A stretch of 26,135 bases of DNA from a virus: IMG/VR virus record IMGVR_UViG_3300020439_000065, positions 1 to 26,135 of that record. One strand, written 5' to 3'. Below, one piece after another: positions 3,545 through 23,115 of the stretch. Positions within the stretch are counted from its first letter, which is position 1. Each line of letters begins with the position of its first letter. A program made the translations under genes and the position numbers. The notes beneath the pieces are model-generated. The model saw nothing but the letters and a program-made list of their open reading frames with translations. It was not told where the DNA came from and made no database searches.

Positions 3545-4150
3545 ATGTTAGAAACAATGTGCGAAGTGTTAAAACACTCATACAACCTTGGTCTAATTTC
3601 AACAAGAGACGGCAACGCTTCAATTAGACATAAAAAAGATGGTCACTTCTATATCACTCCGTCAGGTGTGAGAAAACAAAATTTACAATACACACATTAC
3701 AAAAAAATTGATGTCGTATCAGGATTGTCAATGGACTATACTCAAGAAAGTATAGGAATGAAACCTAGTGGAGAACTACCACTACACTACGGATTGATGA
3801 AAAGGATAACAACAGGTGTTAGATGTGTAGTGCATTTACATCCAACCTATACCGTAGCAGCTATGCATAGAGGTATAGAATTATCAACATTATGCGAAAA
3901 GTTTCCTGAACTATCAAGATACACAAACGTAGGTCCAAATGTTGGTATGGTACCACCTATCAGTAAAGAACTTGCAGATAAGACACATAAAGCAATGGGA
4001 TTAGATTCAGATGGTAGTACTAAATATGATATAGTAGGTATCGATGGACATGGTGTAGTCGCAGTTGGAGAAACACCTTGGCAAACATTCGAACATATTG
4101 AAAGATTAGAACACATTTGTAAAATTGTATTAGTATCAGGAAATGTCTAA
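3545..4150 (+). CDS. Class II aldolase/adducin-family protein
   Basis: This is a 201-residue protein close to the usual length of bacterial class II aldolases such as L-fuculose-phosphate aldolase and ribulose-phosphate epimerases. The expected order of motifs is intact: GNAS at residues 23-26, TPSG at 38-41, a catalytic-position glutamate E77 (SGELPLHYG), zinc ligands H97 and H99 (VVHLHPTYT) and a third zinc ligand H169 (GHGVV). The family cleaves or isomerises phosphorylated sugars in the cytoplasm using zinc. The substrate cannot be told from sequence. It lies in the late virion block, 6 nt after the previous gene, and overlaps the small cupin-like gene by 8 nt, suggesting joint expression. 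It is unusual in a phage and likely an acquired metabolic or surface-sugar gene. Confidence 0.85.
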   Translation: MLETMCEVLKHSYNLGLISTRDGNASIRHKKDGHFYITPSGVRKQNLQYTHYKKIDVVSGLSMDYTQESIGMKPSGELPLHYGLMKRITTGVRCVVHLHPTYTVAAMHRGIELSTLCEKFPELSRYTNVGPNVGMVPPISKELADKTHKAMGLDSDGSTKYDIVGIDGHGVVAVGETPWQTFEHIERLEHICKIVLVSGNV

Positions 4151-8870: not shown

Positions 8871-9488
8871 ATGGTCGGAAGAGTAATAGATAGTTTAATC
8901 GTATTTCGTATCTTAAAGATGCTAACTACACCGTTTAAAAAAACACAAGCATATAAGTTTGGTTTTATAGATGACCGTGGAAACAGAATCAAAACATTGC
9001 CTGACCCAAATAACCCAGCAGTCAAACTTCCAAATAATCCTTCAACTAAAGACGAAAAAAATTCACTTACACCACTTCATAGATTAGTATTCAATCTTAA
9101 AAAAATCATAGAAAAAGTACCATTTGGTAAATCTGCCTTTGCCTCATATGCAGTTGCATTGTTACTTCTTAAAGAAGAAACTAATTTACCAAGTGACCAA
9201 GTAGACCAATTATTTGAAGAGTTTTATAGACATTTAAAAGATAATAATTTATTTAATGCAGAAATGTTATCAGAGAGTCAAAGTGTAGGAAGAATTACCA
9301 ATCAAGAAAATTATTATCTAAGAACACAAATCAAACAAAACTTTGATGAATTAGAAGAAATCAAAGTTTATCCTGCAAAAACTGAAGTCACAAATATCAA
9401 AGAAATCAGCATAGGATATGGAATTACCATATATGAGGGTTATATTGGCAGTGACAGAATAATACTAACGGCCGAAGATGTTTATTGA
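8871..9488 (+). CDS. Conserved T4-like phage protein of unknown function
   Basis: This is a 205-residue protein. The N-terminal part (IVFRILKMLTTPFKKTQAYK, then FGFIDDRGNRIKTL) and the middle (LTPLHRLVFNLKKIIEKVPF, ASYAVALLLLKEE) are conserved blocks that I recall from many T4-like phages of marine bacteria and vibrios, annotated only as hypothetical or structural. The hydrophobic helix around residues 107-120 is too short and amphipathic to be a sure membrane span. The C-terminal beta part ends IYEGYIGSDRIILTAEDVY. It overlaps the PAP2 gene by 11 nt and is transcribed from a late-type box. Confidence 0.7.
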   Translation: MVGRVIDSLIVFRILKMLTTPFKKTQAYKFGFIDDRGNRIKTLPDPNNPAVKLPNNPSTKDEKNSLTPLHRLVFNLKKIIEKVPFGKSAFASYAVALLLLKEETNLPSDQVDQLFEEFYRHLKDNNLFNAEMLSESQSVGRITNQENYYLRTQIKQNFDELEEIKVYPAKTEVTNIKEISIGYGITIYEGYIGSDRIILTAEDVY

Positions 9489-10260
9489 AGAAATACTAAA
9501 AGTTGACGAATTGCTTTTTGCTCCACAATCGGAACTTAAACCACCAAAATACGAAAAACTAAAAATCTTTGATGAAGGTTGGCAAAATTTCATGTTGCCT
9601 AGACCTCCAAAAAATTCATCACGTGAAGCATTAAACGAATTGAAATTGATACAAAAAGAATACAATAGTGCTGATGATGAAACTAAACGTCAATATATAA
9701 ATTGTGATGAAGATGCATCTTATTATATAAAAGAAGTATTAAGAGATAATAATTTTGATTTTGATGAAGATACAATGGAAATGATAGAAGACCAATGTCG
9801 ACCTATTATTAAACATTACAAAAACCATTATAATAGACCAAGACCTTATCAACTTGCTGATGCTTTAAATATCGAGTTCAAAAGATTTAAAACAGAAACA
9901 TCAAAAACACCTTCATATCCTTCAGGTCACACCGTGCAACCATATGTCGTTGCAAATCATTACGGTAATTTATATCCAGAAGTCAAACAAGAATTGAGAG
10001 ATGCAGCTGATATATGTGCTTACGGCAGAGTACAAGCAGGTCTACATTATCCTAGTGATTATAGAGCTGGAATTATTTTAGCAGACCACATATCAGAATT
10101 TTTAAATTTAGATAATCTTAAAGAAGATGCACCATTAAACTCTACTGGTGATGCCGTGCAATCGAATCACCCTTTAGTTCGCAGTAAGTCGTTATACAAA
10201 AGAAAGAACGAATTTGACACAAAACGACTATACAAATTACTAAAAAAGAGATATAATTAA
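9478..10260 (+). CDS. PAP2-superfamily phosphatase (class A acid phosphatase-like)
   Basis: This is a 260-residue protein with the complete three-part signature of the PAP2/vanadium-haloperoxidase superfamily: K115-x6-R122-P123 (KNHYNRPRP), P148-S149-G150-H151, and R184-x5-H190-x3-D194 (GRVQAGLHYPSD). H190 would be the phosphate-accepting nucleophile, activated by D194. Unlike membrane lipid phosphatases it has no transmembrane helices, and unlike periplasmic acid phosphatases it has no signal peptide, so it should act in the cytoplasm or be packaged. The usual serine before the third-motif arginine is glycine. The N-terminal 100 residues are helical. The substrate could be nucleotides or phosphorylated metabolites. 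It overlaps the preceding gene by 11 nt. Confidence 0.88.
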   Translation: MFIEEILKVDELLFAPQSELKPPKYEKLKIFDEGWQNFMLPRPPKNSSREALNELKLIQKEYNSADDETKRQYINCDEDASYYIKEVLRDNNFDFDEDTMEMIEDQCRPIIKHYKNHYNRPRPYQLADALNIEFKRFKTETSKTPSYPSGHTVQPYVVANHYGNLYPEVKQELRDAADICAYGRVQAGLHYPSDYRAGIILADHISEFLNLDNLKEDAPLNSTGDAVQSNHPLVRSKSLYKRKNEFDTKRLYKLLKKRYN

Positions 10261-11114: not shown

Positions 11115-12134
11115 ATGCTATGGTTGGAAAAGAAATATTTGTCTATGGTCATGTCAAATTTAGACATGGCAAAATGGATTAACGAAAACACGTTAAATCA
11201 TCGATGTCCTTATTGTGGCGATTCGCAAAAAAATCAGTATAAATCACGTGGATATCATTTTCTTAAAGACCAATCTTTCATTTACAAATGCCATAATTGT
11301 GGTAAGACCACTTCAAGTGTTCATTTTCTAAAAGATAATTTTCCAATGATACACAAAGAGTATCTAAAAGAATGGTTGCAAGAATCAGGTAAAAAACCAG
11401 TAAAAAAAATGCCTTCATCTAATAAATTTAAGTTTACACCAAGAACAGATATTCTAAATAAACGTGAAGACTTAAAAGCAGTTGCAGTTCCAGTTTTAGA
11501 GAAGGCAATTGCAAAAGAATACCTTTTAGATAGAGGAGTTCCAGAATCCAAACTGAAAGGTCTTTGGTTTTGTGATAATGCTCAATCGTTATCGTTTCTA
11601 GGCACAAAATACAAAGATAGAGTCTTGGGTAATGACCCTAGAATAATATTACCATTTTATGCAGAAAATGGGGAACTTGTAGGATTAACAGGTCGAGCAA
11701 TTAATGATTCGCCTTTACGTTATTTAACTATGAGATTCCGAGATGATGTTCCACTCATCTTTAATCTTAATGATGTGGACAAAACTAAAACTATTTACGT
11801 CACTGAGGGACCAATAGATAGTTTATTCCTACCAAATAGTATTGCTGTAGCAGGTAGTGACTTTAAGAAAATAAGCAAAGATATAAAAGAAAATGCGATA
11901 CTAATTTACGACAACGAACCAAGAAATAAAGAAATAATTAAAAAGATAGAAGAGGTCATAGACCTAGGTTATCGAGTCTGTATATGGAATGATAAAAACA
12001 TTTCACAATGTAAAGACATAAATGATATGATAATGAGCGGTTTAAGTGAAAATGAAGTGGTGACTATTATTGAAAAATGTAGCGTATCTGGTCTCTCAGC
12101 ACAATTAGCATTAAAGGAGTTTAAAAGAGTATGA
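11115..12134 (+). CDS. 61: DNA primase, T4 gp61-type
   Basis: This is a 339-residue protein. The N-terminal zinc-binding module has C31-P-Y-C34 and C59-H-N-C62, which fixes the family as a DNA primase. The Toprim catalytic core has the glutamate in IYVTEGPIDSLF (about residue 235) and an acidic pair in ILIYDNEP (about 269). In T4 the equivalent gp61 works with the gp41 helicase to make RNA primers for lagging-strand synthesis. The start at 11115 lies 7 nt from the TATAAT, so a leaderless message is predicted; in-frame ATGs at 11145 and 11151 are alternatives. The gene overlaps nrdA by 4 nt, linking replication to nucleotide supply. Confidence 0.9.
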   Translation: MLWLEKKYLSMVMSNLDMAKWINENTLNHRCPYCGDSQKNQYKSRGYHFLKDQSFIYKCHNCGKTTSSVHFLKDNFPMIHKEYLKEWLQESGKKPVKKMPSSNKFKFTPRTDILNKREDLKAVAVPVLEKAIAKEYLLDRGVPESKLKGLWFCDNAQSLSFLGTKYKDRVLGNDPRIILPFYAENGELVGLTGRAINDSPLRYLTMRFRDDVPLIFNLNDVDKTKTIYVTEGPIDSLFLPNSIAVAGSDFKKISKDIKENAILIYDNEPRNKEIIKKIEEVIDLGYRVCIWNDKNISQCKDINDMIMSGLSENEVVTIIEKCSVSGLSAQLALKEFKRV

Positions 12135-14437
12135 ATTCAGATATCAAAGTAGTCAAGTCTGACGGTTCAAAAGTAGAAATTAATTTAGAAAAAATTCATA
12201 AAATGGTAGAGAAGGCATGTAGAGGTATTACAGGTGTCTCTGAGTCTTTAGTAGAAATGAATAGTGGTCTACAATTTTTTGATGGTATAACAACAAAAGA
12301 AATACAAAAGATACTTATCAAAAGTGCTAGTGATTTGATATCGTTAGAGAGTCCTAATTATCAATTTGTAGCAGCTAGACTTTTATTATTTGCAATTCAA
12401 AAACAAGTTTTTAACACAAAATGGAAAGATGCAGAGATATATCCTTCGCTTAAAGATATTATAGAAAGAAACGTAGACCACGGAGTTTACAACAAAGAAA
12501 TATTAAATTATTATTCAGATAAAGAACTTAAGAAACTAAATGGTTATCTTAGACACAGCAGAGATTTCGAATTTACTTATGCAGGTCTACAACAAATAGT
12601 AGACAAATATTTGGTACAAGATAGAAGTAGTGGAGACATTTTTGAAACTCCGCAATTCATGTACATGTTAATCGCCATGACATTATTTCAAAACTATGGT
12701 GAAAATAGATTAGATTATGTAAAGAGGTATTATGATGCAATCTCACAATTCAAAATTAACATACCAACACCAATTATGGCAGGTGTTAGAACACCGCTTA
12801 AACAATTCGCTAGCTGTGTGCTTGTCGACTCAGGAGACTCTCTCCCATCTATCTTCGCAAGTGACATGGCTATTGGAAGATATGTCGCACAACGAGCAGG
12901 TATTGGGATTAACGCTGGTAGAATCAGAGGAATTGGTAGTAAAATTAGAGGCGGTGAAGTCCAGCATACTGGAGTTATCCCTTTTCTTAAAAAATTTGAA
13001 TCAACGGTTAGATGCTGTACACAAAACGGTGTCAGAGGTGGAAGTGCTACTTGCCACTTCCCTATATGGCACCAAGAAATCGAAGACATCATTGTTCTCA
13101 AGAATAACAAAGGGACTGAAGACAATCGTGTCAGGAAACTCGACTACTCGATTCAATTAAGCAAGTTATTTTATGAAAGATTTATCAATAACGAAGATAT
13201 CACTTTGTTTAGTCCTCATGATGTGCCTGGTCTCTACGAGTCATTTGGCACAAATGGGTTTGATGAACTATATCAGAAGTACGAAAATGCATATTCTATC
13301 CCTAAAAAGAAAGTAAATGCAAGAGAACTTATTACAGATTTATTAAAAGAAAGAGCGGAGACTGGCCGAATCTATATCATGAATATAGACCATTGTAATA
13401 CGCATAGTAGTTTCTTAGACAAAGTGAACATGAGTAATCTTTGTCAAGAAATTACCTTGCCGACTGACCCTATTGAACACATTGATGGTGATGGTGAGAT
13501 TGCATTATGTATTTTGTCAGCAATCAATGTAGGTGTCATTAAAGATGATGAGTTAGAATCATTATGTGACATCGCAGTGAGAGGTTTAGAAGAACTGATT
13601 GATTATCAAGAATATCCAGTTGAAGCTGCAAGAATATCGACTATCAACAGAAGAAGTCTAGGTATCGGTTATATTGGCCTCGCACATTTCTTAGCAAAAA
13701 ATAAAGTCAAATATGATTCACCTGAAGCATTACAACTTGTACATGATTTAACAGAAAGTTTTCAATATTATCTGTTAAAATCATCTAATCAAATTGCTAA
13801 AGAAAAAGGTGCATGTGGTGATTTTGATAAAACAAAATACTCAAAAGGAATTTTACCAATCGACACATATAAGAAAGATGTTGACGAATTAGTTAATTCA
13901 AAATATAAACATGATTGGGAAGAATTGAGAGAGAATATACAAGTTGTTGGTTTAAGACATTCGACACTTACAGCACAAATGCCAAGCGAATCGTCAAGTG
14001 TTGTATCGAATGCAACAAACGGAATAGAACCACCAAGAGATTACTTGTCAGTTAAGAAGAGTAAGAAAGGTACACTTAAACAGATTGTACCACAATATTC
14101 TATATTAAAAAATGCATATACTTTATTGTGGGATATGCAATCAAACGAAGGATATATTAACGTAGTTGCTGTGATGCAAAAATTCTTTGACCAAGCAATA
14201 TCAGGAAACTGGTCTTATAATCCAGAAAATTATGAAAACAACGAAGTACCTGTGTCAGTTATGGCAAAAGATTTGTTAAACACGTATAAGTATGGATGGA
14301 AAACATCTTATTATCAAAATACCATGGACGGTAAAACAGAAGATGTAATTGCAGATAAACCTAGTGCTGTAGATGATGCAGCTAATGTTATGTCAAAGTA
14401 TGAAGAAGGAGAAGATTGCGATGCCTGTGCCATTTGA
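12131..14437 (+). CDS. nrdA: Ribonucleoside-diphosphate reductase alpha subunit, class Ia
   Basis: This is a 768-residue protein, full length for NrdA. The order is: ATP-cone (residues about 5-90; VVKSDGSKVEINLEKIHKMV), then the ten-stranded catalytic barrel. The active-site residues are present: C229 and C460 (redox pair; FASCVLVD and IALCILSAINVG), N436-x-C438-x-E440 (NLCQE, with C438 the thiyl radical), the radical-transfer tyrosine pair (KTSYYQNT) and the C-terminal shuttle cysteines C763 and C766 (CDACAI). The enzyme reduces ribonucleoside diphosphates to deoxy forms. It overlaps primase by 4 nt, is preceded by AAAGGAG, and shares an operon with nrdB and glutaredoxin. It looks fully functional. 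Confidence 0.97.
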   Translation: MNSDIKVVKSDGSKVEINLEKIHKMVEKACRGITGVSESLVEMNSGLQFFDGITTKEIQKILIKSASDLISLESPNYQFVAARLLLFAIQKQVFNTKWKDAEIYPSLKDIIERNVDHGVYNKEILNYYSDKELKKLNGYLRHSRDFEFTYAGLQQIVDKYLVQDRSSGDIFETPQFMYMLIAMTLFQNYGENRLDYVKRYYDAISQFKINIPTPIMAGVRTPLKQFASCVLVDSGDSLPSIFASDMAIGRYVAQRAGIGINAGRIRGIGSKIRGGEVQHTGVIPFLKKFESTVRCCTQNGVRGGSATCHFPIWHQEIEDIIVLKNNKGTEDNRVRKLDYSIQLSKLFYERFINNEDITLFSPHDVPGLYESFGTNGFDELYQKYENAYSIPKKKVNARELITDLLKERAETGRIYIMNIDHCNTHSSFLDKVNMSNLCQEITLPTDPIEHIDGDGEIALCILSAINVGVIKDDELESLCDIAVRGLEELIDYQEYPVEAARISTINRRSLGIGYIGLAHFLAKNKVKYDSPEALQLVHDLTESFQYYLLKSSNQIAKEKGACGDFDKTKYSKGILPIDTYKKDVDELVNSKYKHDWEELRENIQVVGLRHSTLTAQMPSESSSVVSNATNGIEPPRDYLSVKKSKKGTLKQIVPQYSILKNAYTLLWDMQSNEGYINVVAVMQKFFDQAISGNWSYNPENYENNEVPVSVMAKDLLNTYKYGWKTSYYQNTMDGKTEDVIADKPSAVDDAANVMSKYEEGEDCDACAI

Positions 14438-15392
14438 AAAGAGAACTATAGCATTTCAGAGACCTGATAATTGTAAAGAAGGTGAAGAACAAAAATTTGT
14501 AAAAGGTAAAACAAATCCTGAAACATGGGAATTTGTCAAAAACAGATACGTAGTTTTTAGAGGATTAATAGAACCAGAGATTATCAAGTTCTGTTTAGAT
14601 ACATGGAAAGCAGTCGAACATCATCCAAATTCTCAGAGCATTTTAAATCAAGAAACGAGAGATATCACATATAAAAATCCAAAAGCTTCTATTGGTAAAT
14701 CTGTAGCTGGATATTCAACGCCTTGGGGAATAGCAATGCACGAATATCTACATAAAAAATTAGATGATGTTTTAGATTTAAATTTAGGTCCTACGTACAC
14801 ATATACTAGAAAATATTTACGAGGTGCATATCTAGGTTCACATACAGATAGACCATCATGCGAAGTTAGTGCAACTATATGTTTGGATTATAAAACAGAT
14901 GATAACACACCATGGCCCATATGGATTAGAAACGATAGAGATTTTATAAATGAATCTTCTGATTATGTAAAAGAATGCACTCAAGATATACCTCAAAGAT
15001 TAAGAGAAGAAAATAGTTGTCGTAAAGTTTTACTTGAACCTGGCGATGTCATGATGTATCAAGGACCAAATGCACCTCATTGGAGAGATTATCTTTTAGG
15101 AGATTATTCATATCATATGTTTGTACATTTCTATAATAGAAATTCTCGTTTAAGAGAGGCATTTAGCGAAGATTGGTTTTCAAAAAAACACGAAAAAAGT
15201 AGATTACCTGGCAATACGTTATTAAGTGCTTTAGAGTTAGACGGTAGAGAACACATATATAGTACTCAGCAAAATAATCCAGATTTTCATCACTTTACTG
15301 ATGTATATAATTCAGTAAAAGAGAGCAATCATGAACATGATATGCAAAAAATTTCTGCTACTAATGATTATACTGATTGGGAAAAAATATGA
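14421..15392 (+). CDS. 2OG-Fe(II) oxygenase-like protein between nrdA and nrdB
   Basis: This is a 323-residue protein. The start at 14421 (preceded by AAGGAGAAG) is chosen over upstream in-frame ATGs inside nrdA. The core has GSHTDRPSCEVSATICL, giving the HxD pair H141/D143, and GDVMMYQGPNAPHWRD, giving the distal iron ligand H220; the strand YHMFVHFYN follows. These are the facial-triad positions of 2-oxoglutarate/Fe(II) dioxygenases. The 2OG-binding arginine is not certain. It overlaps nrdA by 17 nt and nrdB by 4 nt, so it is expressed with the reductase. Such genes are common in T4-like marine phages; the substrate is unknown. Confidence 0.8.
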   Translation: MPVPFEKRTIAFQRPDNCKEGEEQKFVKGKTNPETWEFVKNRYVVFRGLIEPEIIKFCLDTWKAVEHHPNSQSILNQETRDITYKNPKASIGKSVAGYSTPWGIAMHEYLHKKLDDVLDLNLGPTYTYTRKYLRGAYLGSHTDRPSCEVSATICLDYKTDDNTPWPIWIRNDRDFINESSDYVKECTQDIPQRLREENSCRKVLLEPGDVMMYQGPNAPHWRDYLLGDYSYHMFVHFYNRNSRLREAFSEDWFSKKHEKSRLPGNTLLSALELDGREHIYSTQQNNPDFHHFTDVYNSVKESNHEHDMQKISATNDYTDWEKI

Positions 15393-16489
15393 GCACCGTA
15401 TTCAACAAAAACAACGTAGACTTCAGAAAGAACAAAATGTTCTTTGGTGAAGAATTAAACACTCAAAGATTTGATGAGTTCAAATATCCAATCTTTGATA
15501 AACTTACACAAAAGCAATTAGGGTTCTTTTGGAGACCTGAAGAAGTATCTTTACAAAAAGATAGAGGAGATTATCTATCACTCACTGATGCACAAAAACA
15601 TATCTTTACATCAAATTTAAGATATCAAACACTTTTAGATTCAGTTCAAGGTAGAGCACCATCTATAGCATTTCTACCATTCGTGACTCTACCTGAACTT
15701 GAGTCTTGTATCATCACATGGGACTTCATGGAAACTATTCATAGTCGTTCTTATACACACATTATAAAGAATGTTTACGCAGACCCAAGTGATATATTCG
15801 ATACAATTATAGATGAACCTGCAATTATCAAAAGAGCAGAAATGGTAACAGAAAAGTACGACAAATTTATAGAGTTAGGTCGTAGACAATTATTAGGTCT
15901 CAAAGTAGACGAATACGAATTATATAAAGCATTATATCTGGCACTTATATCAGTTAACATCTTAGAAGGTATACGATTCTTTGTATCATTCGCATGTTCA
16001 TTTGGATTTGGTGAGTTGAAACTTATGGAAGGTTCAGCAAAAATTATATCATTCATTGCTAGAGATGAAGCACAACACCTTGCAGTATCACAACACATTC
16101 TCAAAGCATATAAAAATCAAGAAAAAGATAAGATAATGAATCGAGTTATGAAAGATTGTGAGCAAGAAGTTTATGCAATGTACGAAGATGCAGTTGCACA
16201 GGAGAAAGAATGGGCAGAGTTTCTATTCAAAGAAGGTTCAATGATTGGTTTATCTGTACCATTACTTGGTCAATATGTAGAATTTATAGCAAACAAAAGA
16301 CTTAGAGCGATAGGATTAAATCCAATCTATGATATATCAAGTGCAAACAATCCTTTACCATGGACACAACATTGGTTTAATAGTAGAGGGTTACAGAATG
16401 CACCACAAGAAACTGAGATTGAATCATACGTCATTGGTGGTATCAAACAAGATGTGAATGATGATACTTTCTCAGACTTTAAATTATAG
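15389..16489 (+). CDS. nrdB: Ribonucleoside-diphosphate reductase beta subunit, class Ia
   Basis: This is a 366-residue protein, typical NrdB length. The start is at 15389 (ATGA overlap with the preceding stop). All di-iron ligands are visible at positions close to the E. coli numbering: D84 (LLDSVQGR), E115 and H118 (METIHSRSYTHI), E193 (LEGIRFF), E227 and H230 (RDEAQH). The radical tyrosine is Y122. This makes it an oxygen-dependent tyrosyl-radical class Ia protein, not a manganese or tyrosine-less variant. It supplies the radical to NrdA. It is followed by a short gap and a PP-loop gene. Confidence 0.97.
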   Translation: MSTVFNKNNVDFRKNKMFFGEELNTQRFDEFKYPIFDKLTQKQLGFFWRPEEVSLQKDRGDYLSLTDAQKHIFTSNLRYQTLLDSVQGRAPSIAFLPFVTLPELESCIITWDFMETIHSRSYTHIIKNVYADPSDIFDTIIDEPAIIKRAEMVTEKYDKFIELGRRQLLGLKVDEYELYKALYLALISVNILEGIRFFVSFACSFGFGELKLMEGSAKIISFIARDEAQHLAVSQHILKAYKNQEKDKIMNRVMKDCEQEVYAMYEDAVAQEKEWAEFLFKEGSMIGLSVPLLGQYVEFIANKRLRAIGLNPIYDISSANNPLPWTQHWFNSRGLQNAPQETEIESYVIGGIKQDVNDDTFSDFKL

Positions 16490-17103: not shown

Positions 17104-17328
17104 ATGATAGAAATTTTCAGTAAACCAGCATGTCCATATTGTGTAAAAGCAAAGACACTTTGTGAACAACAAGGATATGATTTTGAATATAAAATGTTAG
17201 ACGAGGACTTTACAAGAGAAGAACTCTTTGAACAATTTCCTACAGCAAGAACTTTTCCACAAATCAGAATAGATGGCCATGCAATCGGTGGATACGACAA
17301 TCTCTTAGAATGGCATCTCAATAAGTAA
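17104..17328 (+). CDS. Glutaredoxin
   Basis: This is a 74-residue protein with the CPYC redox motif (residues 10-13), the cis-proline strand TFPQIRI and the glutathione-binding GGYDNL end, in the normal order for a single-domain glutaredoxin. It would re-reduce the C-terminal cysteines of NrdA using glutathione, as T4 NrdC does. It has the strongest Shine-Dalgarno in the window (AAGGAGGTAATT) and follows the PP-loop gene by 2 nt. The stop overlaps the next start (TAATG). Confidence 0.93.
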   Translation: MIEIFSKPACPYCVKAKTLCEQQGYDFEYKMLDEDFTREELFEQFPTARTFPQIRIDGHAIGGYDNLLEWHLNK

Positions 17329-18163: not shown

Positions 18164-18461
18164 TAAAATAAGTGCTATGGTAGATAAAGCTGTAGAATAT
18201 AGTAAGAAATTAGACATATCACATTACGATGCAGATATCAACATCTATAGACTTCCTCCGTCATTTACACAAAAAGGTATCATAGAACACCCTAGACAAT
18301 TGGAAGGCAAAACTTATTTGTCCATCTATGTCAGATTAGACGAAGAGAGATACATAACGTTAGCACATGAAATGATACATGCCAAACAAATATTAGAAGA
18401 AAGACCTATTGATGAAAATGAGGCATACATTATGGAGAAACAACTAGCAAATGATTTATAA
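18150..18461 (+). CDS. Minimal HExxH (gluzincin-like) metallopeptidase-fold protein
   Basis: This is a 103-residue protein. A helix TLAHEMIHAKQ carries H73-E74-x-x-H77, the zinc-binding and catalytic motif. A second helix DENEAYIMEKQLA contains E89 and E91, at a distance suitable for a third ligand as in small gluzincins. The short N-terminal beta part (INIYRLPPSF, TYLSIYVRLDEERY) would form the edge strands. No signal peptide is seen, so it is cytoplasmic or virion-packed. The target is unknown. Start and stop overlap its neighbours by 14 and 11 nt. Confidence 0.65.
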   Translation: MRIYSKISAMVDKAVEYSKKLDISHYDADINIYRLPPSFTQKGIIEHPRQLEGKTYLSIYVRLDEERYITLAHEMIHAKQILEERPIDENEAYIMEKQLANDL

Positions 18462-19218
18462 TCCTGATATGAAACTTCATTTCTTCGATGAACCCTATAA
18501 ACATGTTCTAATAGAAAACATTATGTTGCCTGAGATAGCAGACGAATTTTTATATAGTGAAACTATCGAAAGATTTTACGAAAAGGTTGGTTTAGAATTT
18601 GTTGAAGAGAGGTCTAATTGGAATAATATGAGAATGGATTTTAGACATTTTACCAAACATGTCATAGATGGAGAAGAAATTTCTCTAGACGATGAAAATA
18701 TTAAAAAATTAATTTATCACGCTAAAGAAGAATCGTTTTCATGGTTACAAAAATGTGCAAACTATTTTGGTGTTATAGATTTACCAGAATTTTTAAGTGA
18801 TACATATAAAACTGAAAAATTTAAAGAAGAATTTAAAAATGACATGTGTTATAGTGCATATATGCCTGTATCTAAACCCACACGATATGGTCAAGCAATA
18901 CATAATGATTTCGTATTTAAACCCATATCAGGTATGATATATTTTAGACATCCAGATGATGTTAGTGCAGGTACAGACATGTTTGATAAAGACCGTAATT
19001 TTGTAAAATGTGTAGATAACATACACAATACTGCTTTTATATGGCCTAATATAGATGGTGACACATATCATAGACCTGCTTTGAGACAACCATCGCCTTT
19101 TCATAGAAAAATTATGAATATCAAGGTCAAACCAAGAAAAGAACTCACGCCTGAAGAGTGGGATAAATTACATAAAATACAGAGAGACCGAAACGAAATT
19201 GATTCGACTAGGGGTTGA
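18451..19218 (+). CDS. 2OG-Fe(II) oxygenase-like protein
   Basis: This is a 255-residue protein; the ATG at 18469 is an alternative start giving MKLHFFDEP. The core has a strand and HxD pair in GQAIHNDFVFKPISGMIYF (H151, D153) and a distal histidine in NTAFIWPNIDGDTYHRPAL (H207), with a basic strand HRKIMNIKVKPR after it. This fits the jelly-roll dioxygenases, with the 2OG arginine perhaps R219. The N-terminal 100 residues are helical. The stop overlaps the -35 element of the next promoter. The substrate is unknown; hydroxylation of a nucleic acid, sugar or protein is possible. Confidence 0.6.
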   Translation: MIYNPDMKLHFFDEPYKHVLIENIMLPEIADEFLYSETIERFYEKVGLEFVEERSNWNNMRMDFRHFTKHVIDGEEISLDDENIKKLIYHAKEESFSWLQKCANYFGVIDLPEFLSDTYKTEKFKEEFKNDMCYSAYMPVSKPTRYGQAIHNDFVFKPISGMIYFRHPDDVSAGTDMFDKDRNFVKCVDNIHNTAFIWPNIDGDTYHRPALRQPSPFHRKIMNIKVKPRKELTPEEWDKLHKIQRDRNEIDSTRG

Positions 19219-19945: not shown

Positions 19946-19953
19946 TATAAATA
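19946..19953 (+). promoter_or_regulatory. T4-type late promoter box TATAAATA
   Basis: An exact TATAAATA (within ACTATAAATAAAAG) begins 5 nt after the terminator and ends 5 nt before the ATG at 19959. At T4 spacing the first transcribed base is the A of the ATG. It starts the lysis/cytochrome operon as a late unit. Confidence 0.75.
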
Positions 19954-19958
19954 AAAGT

Positions 19959-20204
19959 ATGAAAACTCTAAAGACTATCTTAGAAAAAATCTGGAATTGG
20001 ATTAAATACTTATTTACGACACGTTATAAAATTACCGTATCATTCAATAAAGAATACGGTGATGCAGACGATAGGTCATACATAGTAAAAAAAGTTTTAG
20101 TGCAGAAAGAAAAGCACTTGAAATTTAGAACGGAAGAAGATAAAATAGTAGAGTACAGAAGTTCAGCTGGACTGAATTATATTATAGAGGATTATGATGG
20201 TTGA
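19959..20204 (+). CDS. Small conserved protein with amphipathic N-terminus
   Basis: This is an 81-residue protein. The first 25 residues (MKTLKTILEKIWNWIKYLFT) are aromatic and amphipathic, likely membrane-associated. The rest is a beta-rich domain (YKITVSFNKEY, SYIVKKVLVQKEKHLKFRTE, LNYIIEDYD). I recall homologous small proteins in T4-like cyanophages with no function. It is the first gene of the late operon with spanins and cytochrome, has no Shine-Dalgarno, and overlaps the next ORF by 11 nt. Confidence 0.65.
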   Translation: MKTLKTILEKIWNWIKYLFTTRYKITVSFNKEYGDADDRSYIVKKVLVQKEKHLKFRTEEDKIVEYRSSAGLNYIIEDYDG

Positions 20205-20364
20205 ATTATTATTTTTATCAGGAATAGCTCTAGTTGCATTATTCAGTATTTACCTTTTTTTAGCAAAAAGCTTAGAAGGTACTAAATGCATAACACAACC
20301 ATACAGAACTAAAAATGGCAAGTTAAGAACTGCCTTAAAAAACAGGAGAAATTACTTAAATTAA
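20194..20364 (+). CDS. Small single-span membrane protein (holin candidate)
   Basis: This is a 56-residue ORF filling the gap before the cytochrome gene; a second ATG one codon later is an alternative. A single hydrophobic helix (LLFLSGIALVALFSIYLFLA) is followed by a polar, strongly basic tail (RTKNGKLRTALKNRRNYLN). One transmembrane segment with a basic cytoplasmic tail, close to spanin genes, fits a small holin or antiholin, but such proteins are too variable to assign. It ends 1 nt before the cytochrome ATG. Confidence 0.5.
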   Translation: MMVELLFLSGIALVALFSIYLFLAKSLEGTKCITQPYRTKNGKLRTALKNRRNYLN

Positions 20365-20365
20365 A

Positions 20366-20809
20366 ATGAATGATATAGCAGGATTAATGGTAGCATTTTT
20401 AATCTCATTTGGTGGATTACTATATTACACATACGATAATTTAGAATACAAGGGATACCCTAGAGTACAAAATTGTACAGGAGAGTGTTACGAAGAATAT
20501 GTCAGAACACATGGTACAGCAGTAGAAATAGAAATGAAGAAACAAGAACTTGCGAGTGCAGATGAGTTTAGTAGTATCAGAAGTTTATGGGCAGGTTGTG
20601 CCGCTTGTCATGGTCAAAATGGAGAAGGCATGGCAGTTTTTCCAGCACTCAAGGGACAGACAGCAGATTATATCATCGACAGATTGACTACATATAAGAA
20701 TAAAGGCGAAGTCGGTGCTATGTCATCAACCATGTGGGCCCAAGCAGGACAATTATCAGAACAAGACATTGCAACACTTGGCAAATTTATTGAGGTTGAA
20801 TTAAAATAA
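20366..20809 (+). CDS. Membrane-anchored c-type cytochrome (class I, c553-like)
   Basis: This is a 147-residue protein. An N-terminal hydrophobic helix (residues about 3-22) acts as a signal anchor with the rest in the periplasm. A covalent haem site is present, C78-A-A-C81-H82, followed by a typical class I end: GEGMAVFPALKGQ, DYIIDRLTTYKN, a methionine ligand candidate M119 or M123 (AMSSTM) and the C-terminal helix LSEQDIATLGKFIEV. C37 and C41 near the membrane (NCTGEC) are an extra pair. It would carry electrons, and maturation needs the host cytochrome c assembly machinery. It sits between a small membrane protein and spanins, overlapping the next start by one base. It is rare in phages; host-derived origin is likely. 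Confidence 0.9.
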   Translation: MNDIAGLMVAFLISFGGLLYYTYDNLEYKGYPRVQNCTGECYEEYVRTHGTAVEIEMKKQELASADEFSSIRSLWAGCAACHGQNGEGMAVFPALKGQTADYIIDRLTTYKNKGEVGAMSSTMWAQAGQLSEQDIATLGKFIEVELK

Positions 20810-21192
20810 TGCAACAATTTTTTATAGCAATAATATTGGTACTTGGATTAGGTTCATGGTATCTATACAACGAAAATCAAACACTCACTGCAAATAACTT
20901 TAAATTAGAACTTGCAGTCGAAGAACAAAAAGAAACAATGAGAGTAATGCAAGAGAACTTTGAAAAGCAAGGTATAGCATTACAGAATCTATCCAGAAGA
21001 AATGCACAAATCGAAGCAGATAAAGACAAATATCTACAAATCTTATCAAAACACAACTTCGAAAAACTTGCGATTGCAAAACCAGGTTTAATGGAGATAA
21101 GGTTCAATAAAGGTACAGACGAAGTTTTAAGGGAGTTAGAGAATGATACTAAAGAAATTAGTAATCTTGACAGCACTAGCAGTAACGATTAG
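20809..21192 (+). CDS. Inner-membrane spanin (i-spanin)-like protein
   Basis: This is a 127-residue protein. It has an N-terminal transmembrane anchor (FFIAIILVLGLGSWYLY) followed by a long periplasmic coiled coil (residues about 25-85, FKLELAVEEQKETMRVMQEN...), the classic Rz layout. The last 50 nt overlap the start of a lipoprotein gene in another frame, the standard i-/o-spanin gene arrangement. The pair would span the periplasm and fuse the inner and outer membranes at the end of lysis. The start overlaps the cytochrome stop (TAATG). Confidence 0.75.
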   Translation: MQQFFIAIILVLGLGSWYLYNENQTLTANNFKLELAVEEQKETMRVMQENFEKQGIALQNLSRRNAQIEADKDKYLQILSKHNFEKLAIAKPGLMEIRFNKGTDEVLRELENDTKEISNLDSTSSND

Positions 21193-21661
21193 TGGTTGCT
21201 CAATATTAGGTACAAAGAAAGTAGAAGTTGTCTCGAAACCAGTTCAACTGGATATCATGCAACCAACACTACCAAGAGAGGTATCTTTACAAACTCCAAA
21301 ATGGTACGTTGTTTCAGAAGCCAGAATTGCAAACCCATGTATTAAAAGATTACAAGACGATGGTTCAATGAAAAGACCAAAGTCTTGTCTACCAGAAGAC
21401 AGGGAGAATCCAGATTGGCCAGAAGGATATACATATCTCGATAGATTTCTAGATGAAATGAAAGCACAAAACAATGGTGATGTTGTTTTCGTAGGAACTA
21501 CAATAGGTGACTACAAGAAGATGACAATAAATAATCAAGAAGTTCGTAGATATATAAGAGAACTAGGTGAAGTAATAATTTATTATCGTGATGTAACAAT
21601 GCCGAATGGTGACAAGGGTGTCGGTATTGAAGTGAAAAAGAATGAAACCAATAAAAACTAG
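21143..21661 (+). CDS. Outer-membrane spanin (o-spanin)-like lipoprotein
   Basis: This is a 172-residue protein. The signal peptide MILKKLVILTALAVTISGC ends in a lipobox (ISGC, C19), so it should be lipidated and placed in the outer membrane. The mature part starts with a proline-containing linker (VSKPVQLDIMQPTLPREVSL) and ends with a helix-forming stretch (QEVRRYIRELGEVIIYYRD). It is longer than classical Rz1 but resembles the o-spanin type of T4-like marine phages as I recall. A pair C48/C63 is found in the extra insert. A GGGAG ribosome site inside the i-spanin gene precedes it; it overlaps the next gene by 20 nt. Confidence 0.75.
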   Translation: MILKKLVILTALAVTISGCSILGTKKVEVVSKPVQLDIMQPTLPREVSLQTPKWYVVSEARIANPCIKRLQDDGSMKRPKSCLPEDRENPDWPEGYTYLDRFLDEMKAQNNGDVVFVGTTIGDYKKMTINNQEVRRYIRELGEVIIYYRDVTMPNGDKGVGIEVKKNETNKN

Positions 21662-22436
21662 TAAACCAGGTCCAGAATATTATAGACCTGCACAAGGATT
21701 TTATAATCATTTCTTTCCTACTACCATATTCAATGGTAGAGTCAATTTAAATCACGAAGAGGTCAGACAACACATAGACCATGTTACATCTAAAATACCT
21801 AAGGTGGTAGAAAATATTGATGGTGACCATCTACACAGAGGTAACGACTATACAACTTATTTCTTTCAAGAACTTAAACAGGAAACACACAATCAACCAT
21901 GGTTCACTTCTTTTGCAAATCAAATGAAAGATTCTTATGTTGAATATCTAAGAAGTCAATTTCATTTAGACATGACAGGTCTTAAAAGAAGTGATATACA
22001 TTTTTTTGCTTGGGTAAATAAATATTCGACTAAACATTCACACTCAGTACACGACCATGTTAGGTCAAGATTATCTGGCACATACTATCTGACCTGCGAA
22101 AATGCACAACCTATCACATTTATAAATCCAGCAAATGTAGCTGTTTTCAATAACGATGTATTAAACAACGACCACCTTGCAGAAGAAGATAGTCAATTTC
22201 TTATAAATGGTGCTGGTTCATCTCAGATGGAAGTTAAATTTATGCCGAAAGAAGGCGATTTCCTTTTATGGCCTAGTTATCTATTGCATTATGTACATCC
22301 AAGTGATGAATACGAAAACGATAATTATCAGAGATATTCTATATCATTTAATTTAGCACATAATATGCCTTTAGACAACAAAGAACATGGTGATGAATTA
22401 GATTATTCGTTTCTAATGGAGAATAATAATGTTTGA
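21642..22436 (+). CDS. 2OG-Fe(II) oxygenase family protein (2OG-FeII_Oxy_5-like)
   Basis: This is a 264-residue protein. It shows the family layout: an iron-ligand cluster H137-D138-H139 in SVHDHVRSRLSGTYYL, a long loop with PITFINPANV, then GDFLLWPSYLLHYVHP with distal histidine H216, and NYQRYSISFNLAH with the 2OG-binding arginine R231. These match the PF13759-type dioxygenases frequent in T4-like marine phages. The reaction would be an oxygen- and 2-oxoglutarate-dependent hydroxylation of an unknown substrate. The gene starts 20 nt inside the o-spanin gene and ends 8 nt into the next oxygenase, so the three are coupled. Confidence 0.85.
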   Translation: MKPIKTSKPGPEYYRPAQGFYNHFFPTTIFNGRVNLNHEEVRQHIDHVTSKIPKVVENIDGDHLHRGNDYTTYFFQELKQETHNQPWFTSFANQMKDSYVEYLRSQFHLDMTGLKRSDIHFFAWVNKYSTKHSHSVHDHVRSRLSGTYYLTCENAQPITFINPANVAVFNNDVLNNDHLAEEDSQFLINGAGSSQMEVKFMPKEGDFLLWPSYLLHYVHPSDEYENDNYQRYSISFNLAHNMPLDNKEHGDELDYSFLMENNNV

Positions 22437-23115
22437 TTATTATGCAAACGAAGAATTATATAAATTTTCTGAGAAGTGGAGTCCAATATATGATGATGTC
22501 AACAAGGTTCTTATCATAGATGACTTTTATGCCAATCCAAACGACATATATGACCATATCGAATGTCGACCTAAACCACTTTGGAAATATAATCCAGAAC
22601 GCAATAGTCAAAACACTAAAGACTACCTTGATTGTCGTATTATAGATAGAAACGGACATCCAGGCAGAATATATTACGCAGAACACGAAAGACTTTTAAA
22701 TCTATTTCGTCAATATTGGTGGAAAGGTCACTACGAATGGTCAAATGTATATGAATTTAATTGTTTCAAAACAATAAATGTTGATGATAAACAAATACAA
22801 CATTATCCACACATCGATAGTGAATTGCAATGTCCTGATGAAACATCTGTACTCAATATGTTAGTTTACATGGATAAAGAAGAAGACGGTGGTACAGCAA
22901 TATATCGTGGAGAATGGATAACAAACGATGAACAAATGAATCTTATGTATCCTGTTCATGAAAGATTTAAACTAGACCATGTTATACCTGCAAAATTTAA
23001 TAGATGTGCTATTTTTCCAGGTAATCGTATGCATGGCGCTTATATTGATGATTATAGTAAATATAAAGAAAACTGGAGATATACGAAAGTTACATTCTTT
23101 CATCCAAAAAAATAA
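22429..23115 (+). CDS. DUF6445-like 2OG-Fe(II) oxygenase protein
   Basis: This is a 228-residue protein with NKVLIIDDFYANPNDIYDHI at the start, typical of phage oxygenases of the DUF6445 type. Iron ligands would be H128 and D130 (YPHIDSE) and H202 (RMHGAYID), with R217 as 2OG-binding arginine (RYTKVTFF). A core strand LNMLVYMDKEEDGGTAIY lies between. All key residues are present. It overlaps the upstream oxygenase by 8 nt, so two different oxygenases are made together. The substrate is unknown. Confidence 0.8.
   Translation: MFDYYANEELYKFSEKWSPIYDDVNKVLIIDDFYANPNDIYDHIECRPKPLWKYNPERNSQNTKDYLDCRIIDRNGHPGRIYYAEHERLLNLFRQYWWKGHYEWSNVYEFNCFKTINVDDKQIQHYPHIDSELQCPDETSVLNMLVYMDKEEDGGTAIYRGEWITNDEQMNLMYPVHERFKLDHVIPAKFNRCAIFPGNRMHGAYIDDYSKYKENWRYTKVTFFHPKK

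What the first reader, a model, noticed from the sequence alone, without database searches (positions are those of the whole stretch)
20366..20809. Phage-encoded membrane-anchored c-type cytochrome
A complete CAACH haem site, a class I C-terminal helix and an N-terminal anchor show a c553-like electron carrier. Phage cytochromes are rare. Placed in a late operon with spanins, it may keep the respiratory chain running while host synthesis stops, or influence the membrane potential that sets lysis timing. The extra C37/C41 pair near the membrane is unusual.
Basis: partly seen in the sequence, partly recalled or inferred. Interest (0 to 1): 0.8.

Follow-up and report, generated by a model that had tools for sequence, protein, structure and literature searches.

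The report
Widespread phage-encoded respiratory cytochrome c
Hundreds of uncultured ocean phages related to T4 carry a gene for a membrane-anchored haem protein of the kind bacteria use in respiration, often beside a phage copy of a respiratory oxidase, which suggests that these viruses rewire the breathing of the bacteria they infect.

Summary
ORF 20366-20809 encodes a 147-residue, N-terminally anchored class I cytochrome c: CAACH at residues 78-82, Met123 as predicted axial ligand, Cys37/Cys41 near the membrane.

It is not rare. A profile found relatives in 486 IMG/VR contigs. In the 104 viral loci read, CAACH and CxGxCY are present in 104 of 104. The gene is under purifying selection. Its haem domain is cytochrome c4/c554-like. 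The N-terminal half matched nothing in about 800 proteobacterial genomes, and no phage record searched has the gene, so this is neither host contamination nor a known phage family.

The spanin position is a peculiarity of the window's own lineage (3 of 104 relatives). The usual place is the ribonucleotide-reductase block: nrdB upstream or glutaredoxin downstream in 59 of 104. This counts against a lysis-timing role.

In other phages it forms overlapping operons with alternative oxidase (PF01786, E about 1e-66) and two unnamed small membrane-protein families; two long T4-like contigs carry cytochrome plus both small proteins.

Best reading: a respiratory electron-transport gene set of T4-like phages of marine heterotrophs, parallel to cyanophage plastocyanin plus PTOX. 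Electron transfer, partners and host are inferred. I found no description of it in the papers searched.

The parts
20366..20809 (+). phage cytochrome c gene (147 aa)
   Evidence: PF00034 E 2.9e-8; family of 486 viral contigs; dN/dS about 0.13 against L002
20375..20431 (+). N-terminal membrane anchor (residues 4-22)
   Evidence: hydropathy 1.8; helix 3-24 in the AF2 model
20474..20488 (+). C37-x3-C41 of the CxGxCY motif, possible disulphide
   Evidence: invariant in 104 of 104 viral relatives; CxxxC[YFW] in 0 of 76 bacterial relatives
20597..20611 (+). CAACH haem-attachment site, residues 78-82
   Evidence: sequence; invariant in 104 of 104
20732..20734 (+). Met123, predicted distal axial haem ligand (Met119 at 20720-20722 is also invariant)
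   Evidence: alignment with c4/c554 cytochromes; invariant in A1
20759..20800 (+). C-terminal helix of the class I cytochrome c fold (residues 132-145)
   Evidence: AF2 model
20809..21192 (+). Rz-like i-spanin, overlaps the cytochrome gene by one base
   Evidence: phrog_739 E 1.1e-15
21143..21661 (+). Rz1-like o-spanin (lipoprotein signal, ISGC)
   Evidence: phrog_812 E 2.4e-11
19959..20204 (+). small ORF (A30) found next to Rz/Rz1 in relatives, also where the cytochrome gene is elsewhere
   Evidence: synteny
20197..20364 (+). 55-aa single-TM ORF directly upstream of the cytochrome gene, conserved in L002, L003 and L007
19906..19941 (+). terminator-like hairpin plus T-run that separates the upstream 5'-nucleotidase gene from this operon
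   Evidence: read directly from the sequence; loop longer than the limit of the scan
12131..14437 (+). nrdA of the same phage; the cytochrome gene sits beside the nrd block in most relatives, not here
   Evidence: synteny
15377..16489 (+). nrdB (labelled by ORF position and synteny with nrdA and glutaredoxin)
17104..17328 (+). glutaredoxin-like gene, immediately downstream of the cytochrome gene in 46 of 104 relatives
   Evidence: phrog_22 E 8e-17; synteny

Best explanation
The gene encodes a phage respiratory auxiliary protein: a monohaem, c4/c554-like class I cytochrome c held on the periplasmic face of the host inner membrane by one N-terminal helix. It is probably matured by the host's cytochrome c assembly system. 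It most likely adds to, or replaces, the host's own electron carrier between the bc1 complex and the terminal oxidase, so that quinol oxidation, membrane potential and ATP supply continue for phage replication after host protein synthesis stops. It belongs to a set of respiratory genes in T4-like phages of marine heterotrophic bacteria, whose other members are an alternative oxidase and two small membrane proteins of unknown role. Shown: sequence family, haem motif, conservation, selection, genomic association. Inferred: haem loading, topology, redox partners, host, physiological effect.
For: Pfam PF00034 hit. The profile of 25 phage members matches solved c4/c552/c554 cytochromes at E 6e-18 to 1e-14. 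The AF2 model matches the same fold: 8yts Z 7.0 over 78 residues, 1cno Z 6.1, and cytochrome c4 in the Pseudomonas bc1-cbb3 supercomplex (8smr) Z 5.6. Haem site and cysteine pair invariant, axial Met invariant in alignment A1. Purifying selection: dN 0.059, dS 0.453 against L002. 486 viral contigs. Co-location in several independent arrangements with alternative oxidase, a two-TM protein and a small single-TM protein, often with 1-4-base gene overlaps; seen from the oxidase side, 32 of 80 loci carry the cytochrome within 6 kb. Two long T4-like contigs (130 and 135 kb) carry cytochrome plus both small proteins. The nrdB/glutaredoxin neighbourhood points to service of nucleotide synthesis. Cyanophages carry the functional parallel petE plus PTOX (PMC3037559).
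Against: No biochemistry: haem incorporation and electron transfer are untested. The host is unknown, so a compatible terminal oxidase and a cytochrome c maturation system are assumed. The window lacks the oxidase and both small proteins, though it is only a 26 kb fragment. Alternative oxidase is itself independent of cytochrome c, so its co-location shows a common respiratory theme, not a shared pathway. In the window's lineage the gene lies next to the spanins. The AF2 model is of middling confidence (pLDDT 71.7, pTM 0.46), and Z values of 5-7 are modest by themselves.
Confidence: 0.68

Rival explanations
1. Lysis-related role: the cytochrome acts in the late operon with the spanins and sets or senses the membrane potential that triggers lysis.
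For: In the window it overlaps the Rz gene by one base and lies in the A30-CYTC-Rz-Rz1 operon; the same arrangement occurs in L002, L003 and L007.
Against: Only 3 of 104 relatives have it; in the others the gene is elsewhere, mostly beside nrdB or glutaredoxin, while A30-Rz-Rz1 stay together without it. On the tree window+L002 and L007 fall in different groups, so even this position is not one conserved unit. A TATAAATA late-promoter-like site lies at 19946, but such sites are no commoner than chance.
Confidence: 0.08
2. Saboteur: the phage cytochrome competes with the host carrier, or docks to bc1 or the oxidase, and throttles or diverts host respiration (for example towards the phage alternative oxidase) instead of supporting it.
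For: The phage-specific N-terminal domain and the co-encoded oxidase, which bypasses proton pumping, fit diversion as well as support.
Against: All haem and ligand residues of a working carrier are kept under purifying selection; a blocker would not need a functional haem site. Two long contigs with the cytochrome have no alternative oxidase.
Confidence: 0.13
3. A redox role other than respiration, for instance electron delivery to a periplasmic phage or host enzyme, or peroxide or superoxide removal.
For: The invariant CxGxCY motif is unexplained; small class I cytochromes also serve other partners (general knowledge).
Against: No candidate periplasmic redox enzyme recurs next to it; the recurring neighbour with a known function in electron transport is a quinol oxidase.
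Confidence: 0.09
4. Host contamination or assembly chimera.
For: Class I cytochromes are common in bacteria.
Against: Phage genes around it in the loci read, 486 contigs, no full-length bacterial homologue in about 800 proteobacterial genomes (best hit 78 bits and only the haem domain, against about 245-260 for phage members).
Confidence: 0.01

Closest known systems
Bacterial cytochrome c4 / c554 (e.g. PDB 1etp, 2zzs, 6q2u, and 8smr chain K in the bc1-cbb3 supercomplex)
   Same: Haem domain: CxxCH, distal Met, C-terminal helix, loop pattern; sequence-profile E 6e-18 to 1e-14
   Different: One haem, not two as in c4; N-terminal anchor plus a phage-specific CxGxCY segment; phage-encoded
Cyanophage plastocyanin (petE) and PTOX
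   Same: T4-like marine phages carrying an electron carrier and a quinol oxidase in variable cassettes (PMC3037559)
   Different: Cytochrome c instead of a copper protein; alternative oxidase distinct from cyanophage PTOX (phrog_4235 only at E 1e-4); no psbA in 16 contigs, so probably heterotrophic hosts
Viral cbb3 oxidase subunit I reads from the Indian Ocean (PMC3474794)
   Same: Earlier claim of viral respiratory genes
   Different: Metagenomic reads of a different protein; no cytochrome c, no operon
T4-like pelagiphages and OM43 phages (Mosig, HTVC008M, Melnitz)
   Same: Nearest isolates by major capsid protein of a cytochrome-carrying contig, 63-64%; Melnitz has a distant two-TM homologue
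   Different: None of them encodes the cytochrome

Membership tests
Class I cytochrome c (PF00034) | CxxCH haem-binding motif near the N-terminus of the domain | tested here: met
   CAACH residues 78-82, 104 of 104 relatives
Class I cytochrome c (PF00034) | Score above the curated cut-off | tested here: met
   35.4 against 21.3 bits
Class I cytochrome c (PF00034) | Distal Met ligand and C-terminal helix | tested here: met
   Met123 invariant and aligned to the c4/c554 ligand position; helix 132-145
Class I cytochrome c (PF00034) | Covalent haem c | not testable with these tools
   needs expression, haem stain and spectrum
Cytochrome c4 (dihaem) | Two CxxCH haem domains | tested here: not met
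   single CxxCH; CxGxCY is not a CxxCH site, so c4-like domain, not a cytochrome c4
Cytochrome c553 | Closest sequence match to c553 proteins | tested here: inconclusive
   same fold, but c4/c552/c554 score far better (E 6e-18 to 1e-14 against 1.7e-6)
Rz/Rz1 lysis cassette | Conserved linkage of the cytochrome gene with spanins | tested here: not met
   3 of 104 relatives
Alternative oxidase PF01786 (neighbour in other phages) | Score above cut-off and conserved diiron ligands (Glu and ExxH) | tested here: met
   224.5 against 22.7 bits; E33, E73, H76, E124, E175, H178 invariant
Cyanophage petE/PTOX cassette | Homology of the carrier to plastocyanin and of the oxidase to phage PTOX | tested here: not met
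   carrier is a cytochrome c; oxidase hits phrog_4235 only at E 1e-4; analogue, not member

The most novel reading that the evidence does not exclude
T4-like phages of marine heterotrophs encode a respiratory complex of their own: the anchored cytochrome, the two-TM protein and the small single-TM protein assemble with each other and with host bc1 or terminal oxidase (and, in some phages, with phage alternative oxidase) to take control of host electron flow during infection.
Probability: 0.25. Interest if true: 0.88.

Novelty: new variant of a known kind. Interest (0 to 1): 0.7.

Why it matters
Phage takeover of photosynthetic electron transport in cyanobacteria is well established. An equivalent for respiration in heterotrophic bacteria is, as far as the searched papers show, not described. 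Hundreds of ocean phage contigs carry this cytochrome and a similar number carry an alternative oxidase, so infected cells may respire differently from healthy ones, which bears on marine oxygen and carbon budgets. The genes are small and can be tested in laboratory strains, so whether viruses steer respiration becomes directly testable.

Tried and rejected
Host contamination: rejected. Lysis role: weakened by synteny. T4 late promoter: TATAAATA at 19946, but 3 sites in the window against 3.4 expected, so not used as evidence. CuA-like reading of C37-x3-C41: considered from memory of cytochrome oxidase subunit II (CxxxCxxxH); position 45 is Tyr instead of His and there is no cupredoxin domain, so dropped. 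Decayed second haem site (CxxxCY): possible origin, untested. Host: nearest capsid relatives are SAR11 and OM43 phages, no psbA, best-scoring bacterial alternative oxidase in a 1.2 Mb genome; suggestive only. Fold of the two-TM protein: fair model (pLDDT 80), but no match in PDB by sequence or Foldseek. BFVD search of the cytochrome model: no significant match. Literature on 'phage C48C1', the only phage record with the oxidase: none found.

Full report
WHAT IS THERE. The window is a 26,135-base IMG/VR virus record with T4-like genes: primase (phrog_47), nrdA (75% identical to cyanomyovirus nrdA), nrdB, glutaredoxin and Rz/Rz1 spanins. The ORF 20366-20809 encodes 147 residues: one N-terminal hydrophobic helix, a linker of about 50 residues with C37-T-G-E-C41-Y, and a haem domain with CAACH (78-82), M119, M123 and a C-terminal helix. 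Pfam PF00034 scores it at E 2.9e-8.

A LARGE PHAGE FAMILY. A single-sequence scan found 34 relatives in IMG/VR (57-90% identity). A profile of 25 members found 486 contigs, of which the best 80 were kept. In the 104 viral-type loci held (including one contig binned with a Sphingobacteriales MAG that carries T4-like genes), CAACH and CxGxCY are present in all. Nei-Gojobori dN/dS between the window and L002 is 0.059/0.453, with both halves of the protein constrained. PHROGs has no such family, tblastn against 50,697 phage records finds nothing at E 1e-3, and BFVD has no significant structural match.

NOT HOST DNA. Profile searches of proteobacterial genomes (398 across the phylum, 150 in one order, 369 in one class, with some overlap) found only the haem domain, at best 78 bits against about 245-260 bits for phage members. 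None of the 76 bacterial relatives read has a CxxxC[YFW] motif. The haem domain is c4/c554-like: solved c4, c552 and c554 proteins match the phage profile at E 6e-18 to 1e-14, c553 only at 1e-6; the AF2 model agrees (8yts Z 7.0, 1cno Z 6.1, 8smr chain K Z 5.6). Because it has one haem site and not two, it is not a cytochrome c4.

GENOMIC CONTEXT. In 59 of 104 loci the gene lies immediately after nrdB and/or immediately before glutaredoxin; contigs are partly redundant, so these counts are not independent. Other loci have it beside gp46/SbcC-like, helicase-like or other genes (named by eye except where a family search is cited). The spanin position of the window is shared only by L002, L003 and L007, and the window/L002 pair and L007 fall in different parts of the cytochrome tree. 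The association with lysis genes is therefore local.

RESPIRATORY NEIGHBOURS. Three other families recur beside the cytochrome gene, frequently overlapping it by 1-4 bases. (a) Alternative oxidase, PF01786 E 1.6e-66, with all diiron ligands invariant; it is not the cyanophage PTOX (phrog_4235 at E 1e-4); 17 of 104 loci within the flanks held. (b) A 126-142-residue protein with two predicted TM helices and an invariant His in the second; 30 of 104. (c) A 56-114-residue protein with one C-terminal TM helix; 60 of 104. Seen from the other side, a scan with the oxidase found 463 viral contigs; of the best 80 loci, 32 carry the cytochrome, 23 the two-TM protein and 21 the small protein within about 6 kb. 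Two long T4-like contigs, G001 (130 kb) and G002 (135 kb), have cytochrome, two-TM and small protein, dispersed, without the oxidase. The window has none of the other three, but is a fragment.

HOST. Unknown. psbA is absent from 16 contigs including the two long ones, so cyanobacterial hosts are unlikely. The capsid protein of G002 is closest to SAR11 and OM43 phages (63-64%). The best-scoring bacterial alternative oxidase lies in a 1.2 Mb genome (34% GC around it and 58-63% identity to phage oxidases). These point to small-genome marine proteobacteria but do not settle it.

MECHANISM. Class I cytochromes of this type carry electrons from bc1 to cbb3/aa3 oxidases (established knowledge); a c4 is seen in the Pseudomonas bc1-cbb3 supercomplex (8smr, title). 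With an anchor and all ligand residues conserved, the phage protein most likely does the same, keeping quinol oxidation and membrane energy going while nucleotides are made for phage DNA. The nrd neighbourhood fits this. Alternative oxidase would add an unpumped outlet for electrons. Haem loading, topology, partner and effect are inferred. The function of the CxGxCY pair (disulphide or partner docking) is open.

NOVELTY. Cyanophages carry petE and PTOX in mobile cassettes (PMC3037559), and viral cbb3 subunit I reads have been reported (PMC3474794). Phrase searches for phage or viral cytochrome c and viral alternative oxidase found nothing closer (the library lacks most subscription papers). 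I rate it a new variant of a known kind: electron-transport auxiliary genes, but for respiration and with a phage-specific cytochrome architecture.

Noticed in passing
L083:6420-6980, L095:6426-6989, L010:5411-5998 and 463 IMG/VR contigs: Alternative oxidase (PF01786) encoded by T4-like marine phages, distinct from cyanophage PTOX; also unannotated in GenBank phage C48C1 (OQ984149, 26279-26830, 'hypothetical protein').
   Followed up: partly
L012:4719-5117, L022:1118-1495, G002 116964-117356: Family of 126-142-aa membrane proteins with an invariant His in the second TM helix and a WDxDKEA-like C-terminus; repeatedly beside cytochrome or alternative oxidase; no convincing Pfam, PHROG, NCBIfam or PDB match.
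   Followed up: partly
L064:2940-3230, L058:5287-5547, L010:6435-6764: The small single-TM protein carries near its N-terminus PSAVDDAA(D/N)VMSGY, nearly identical to the C-terminal tail of the phage NrdA (window NrdA ...KPSAVDDAANVMSKYEEGEDCDACAI): a piece of the nrdA 3' end seems to have been copied onto a membrane anchor.
   Followed up: partly
L036 (JAAXIF010000105.1): A 121 kb contig assigned to a Sphingobacteriales MAG carries the T4-like primase-nrdA-nrdB-cytochrome-glutaredoxin block and is probably a misbinned phage contig.
   Followed up: no
window 14373-15392, 18451-19218, 21642-22436, 22429-23115: Several 2OG-Fe(II)-oxygenase-like or related genes in one phage fragment (PF13759 at 21642, DUF6445 at 22429; the other two by eye only).
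   Followed up: no
window 3545-4150 and 9478-10260: A class II aldolase / methylthioribulose-phosphate dehydratase-like gene (E about 1e-13) and a PAP2-type acid phosphatase-like gene (E 5e-7) in the phage.
   Followed up: no
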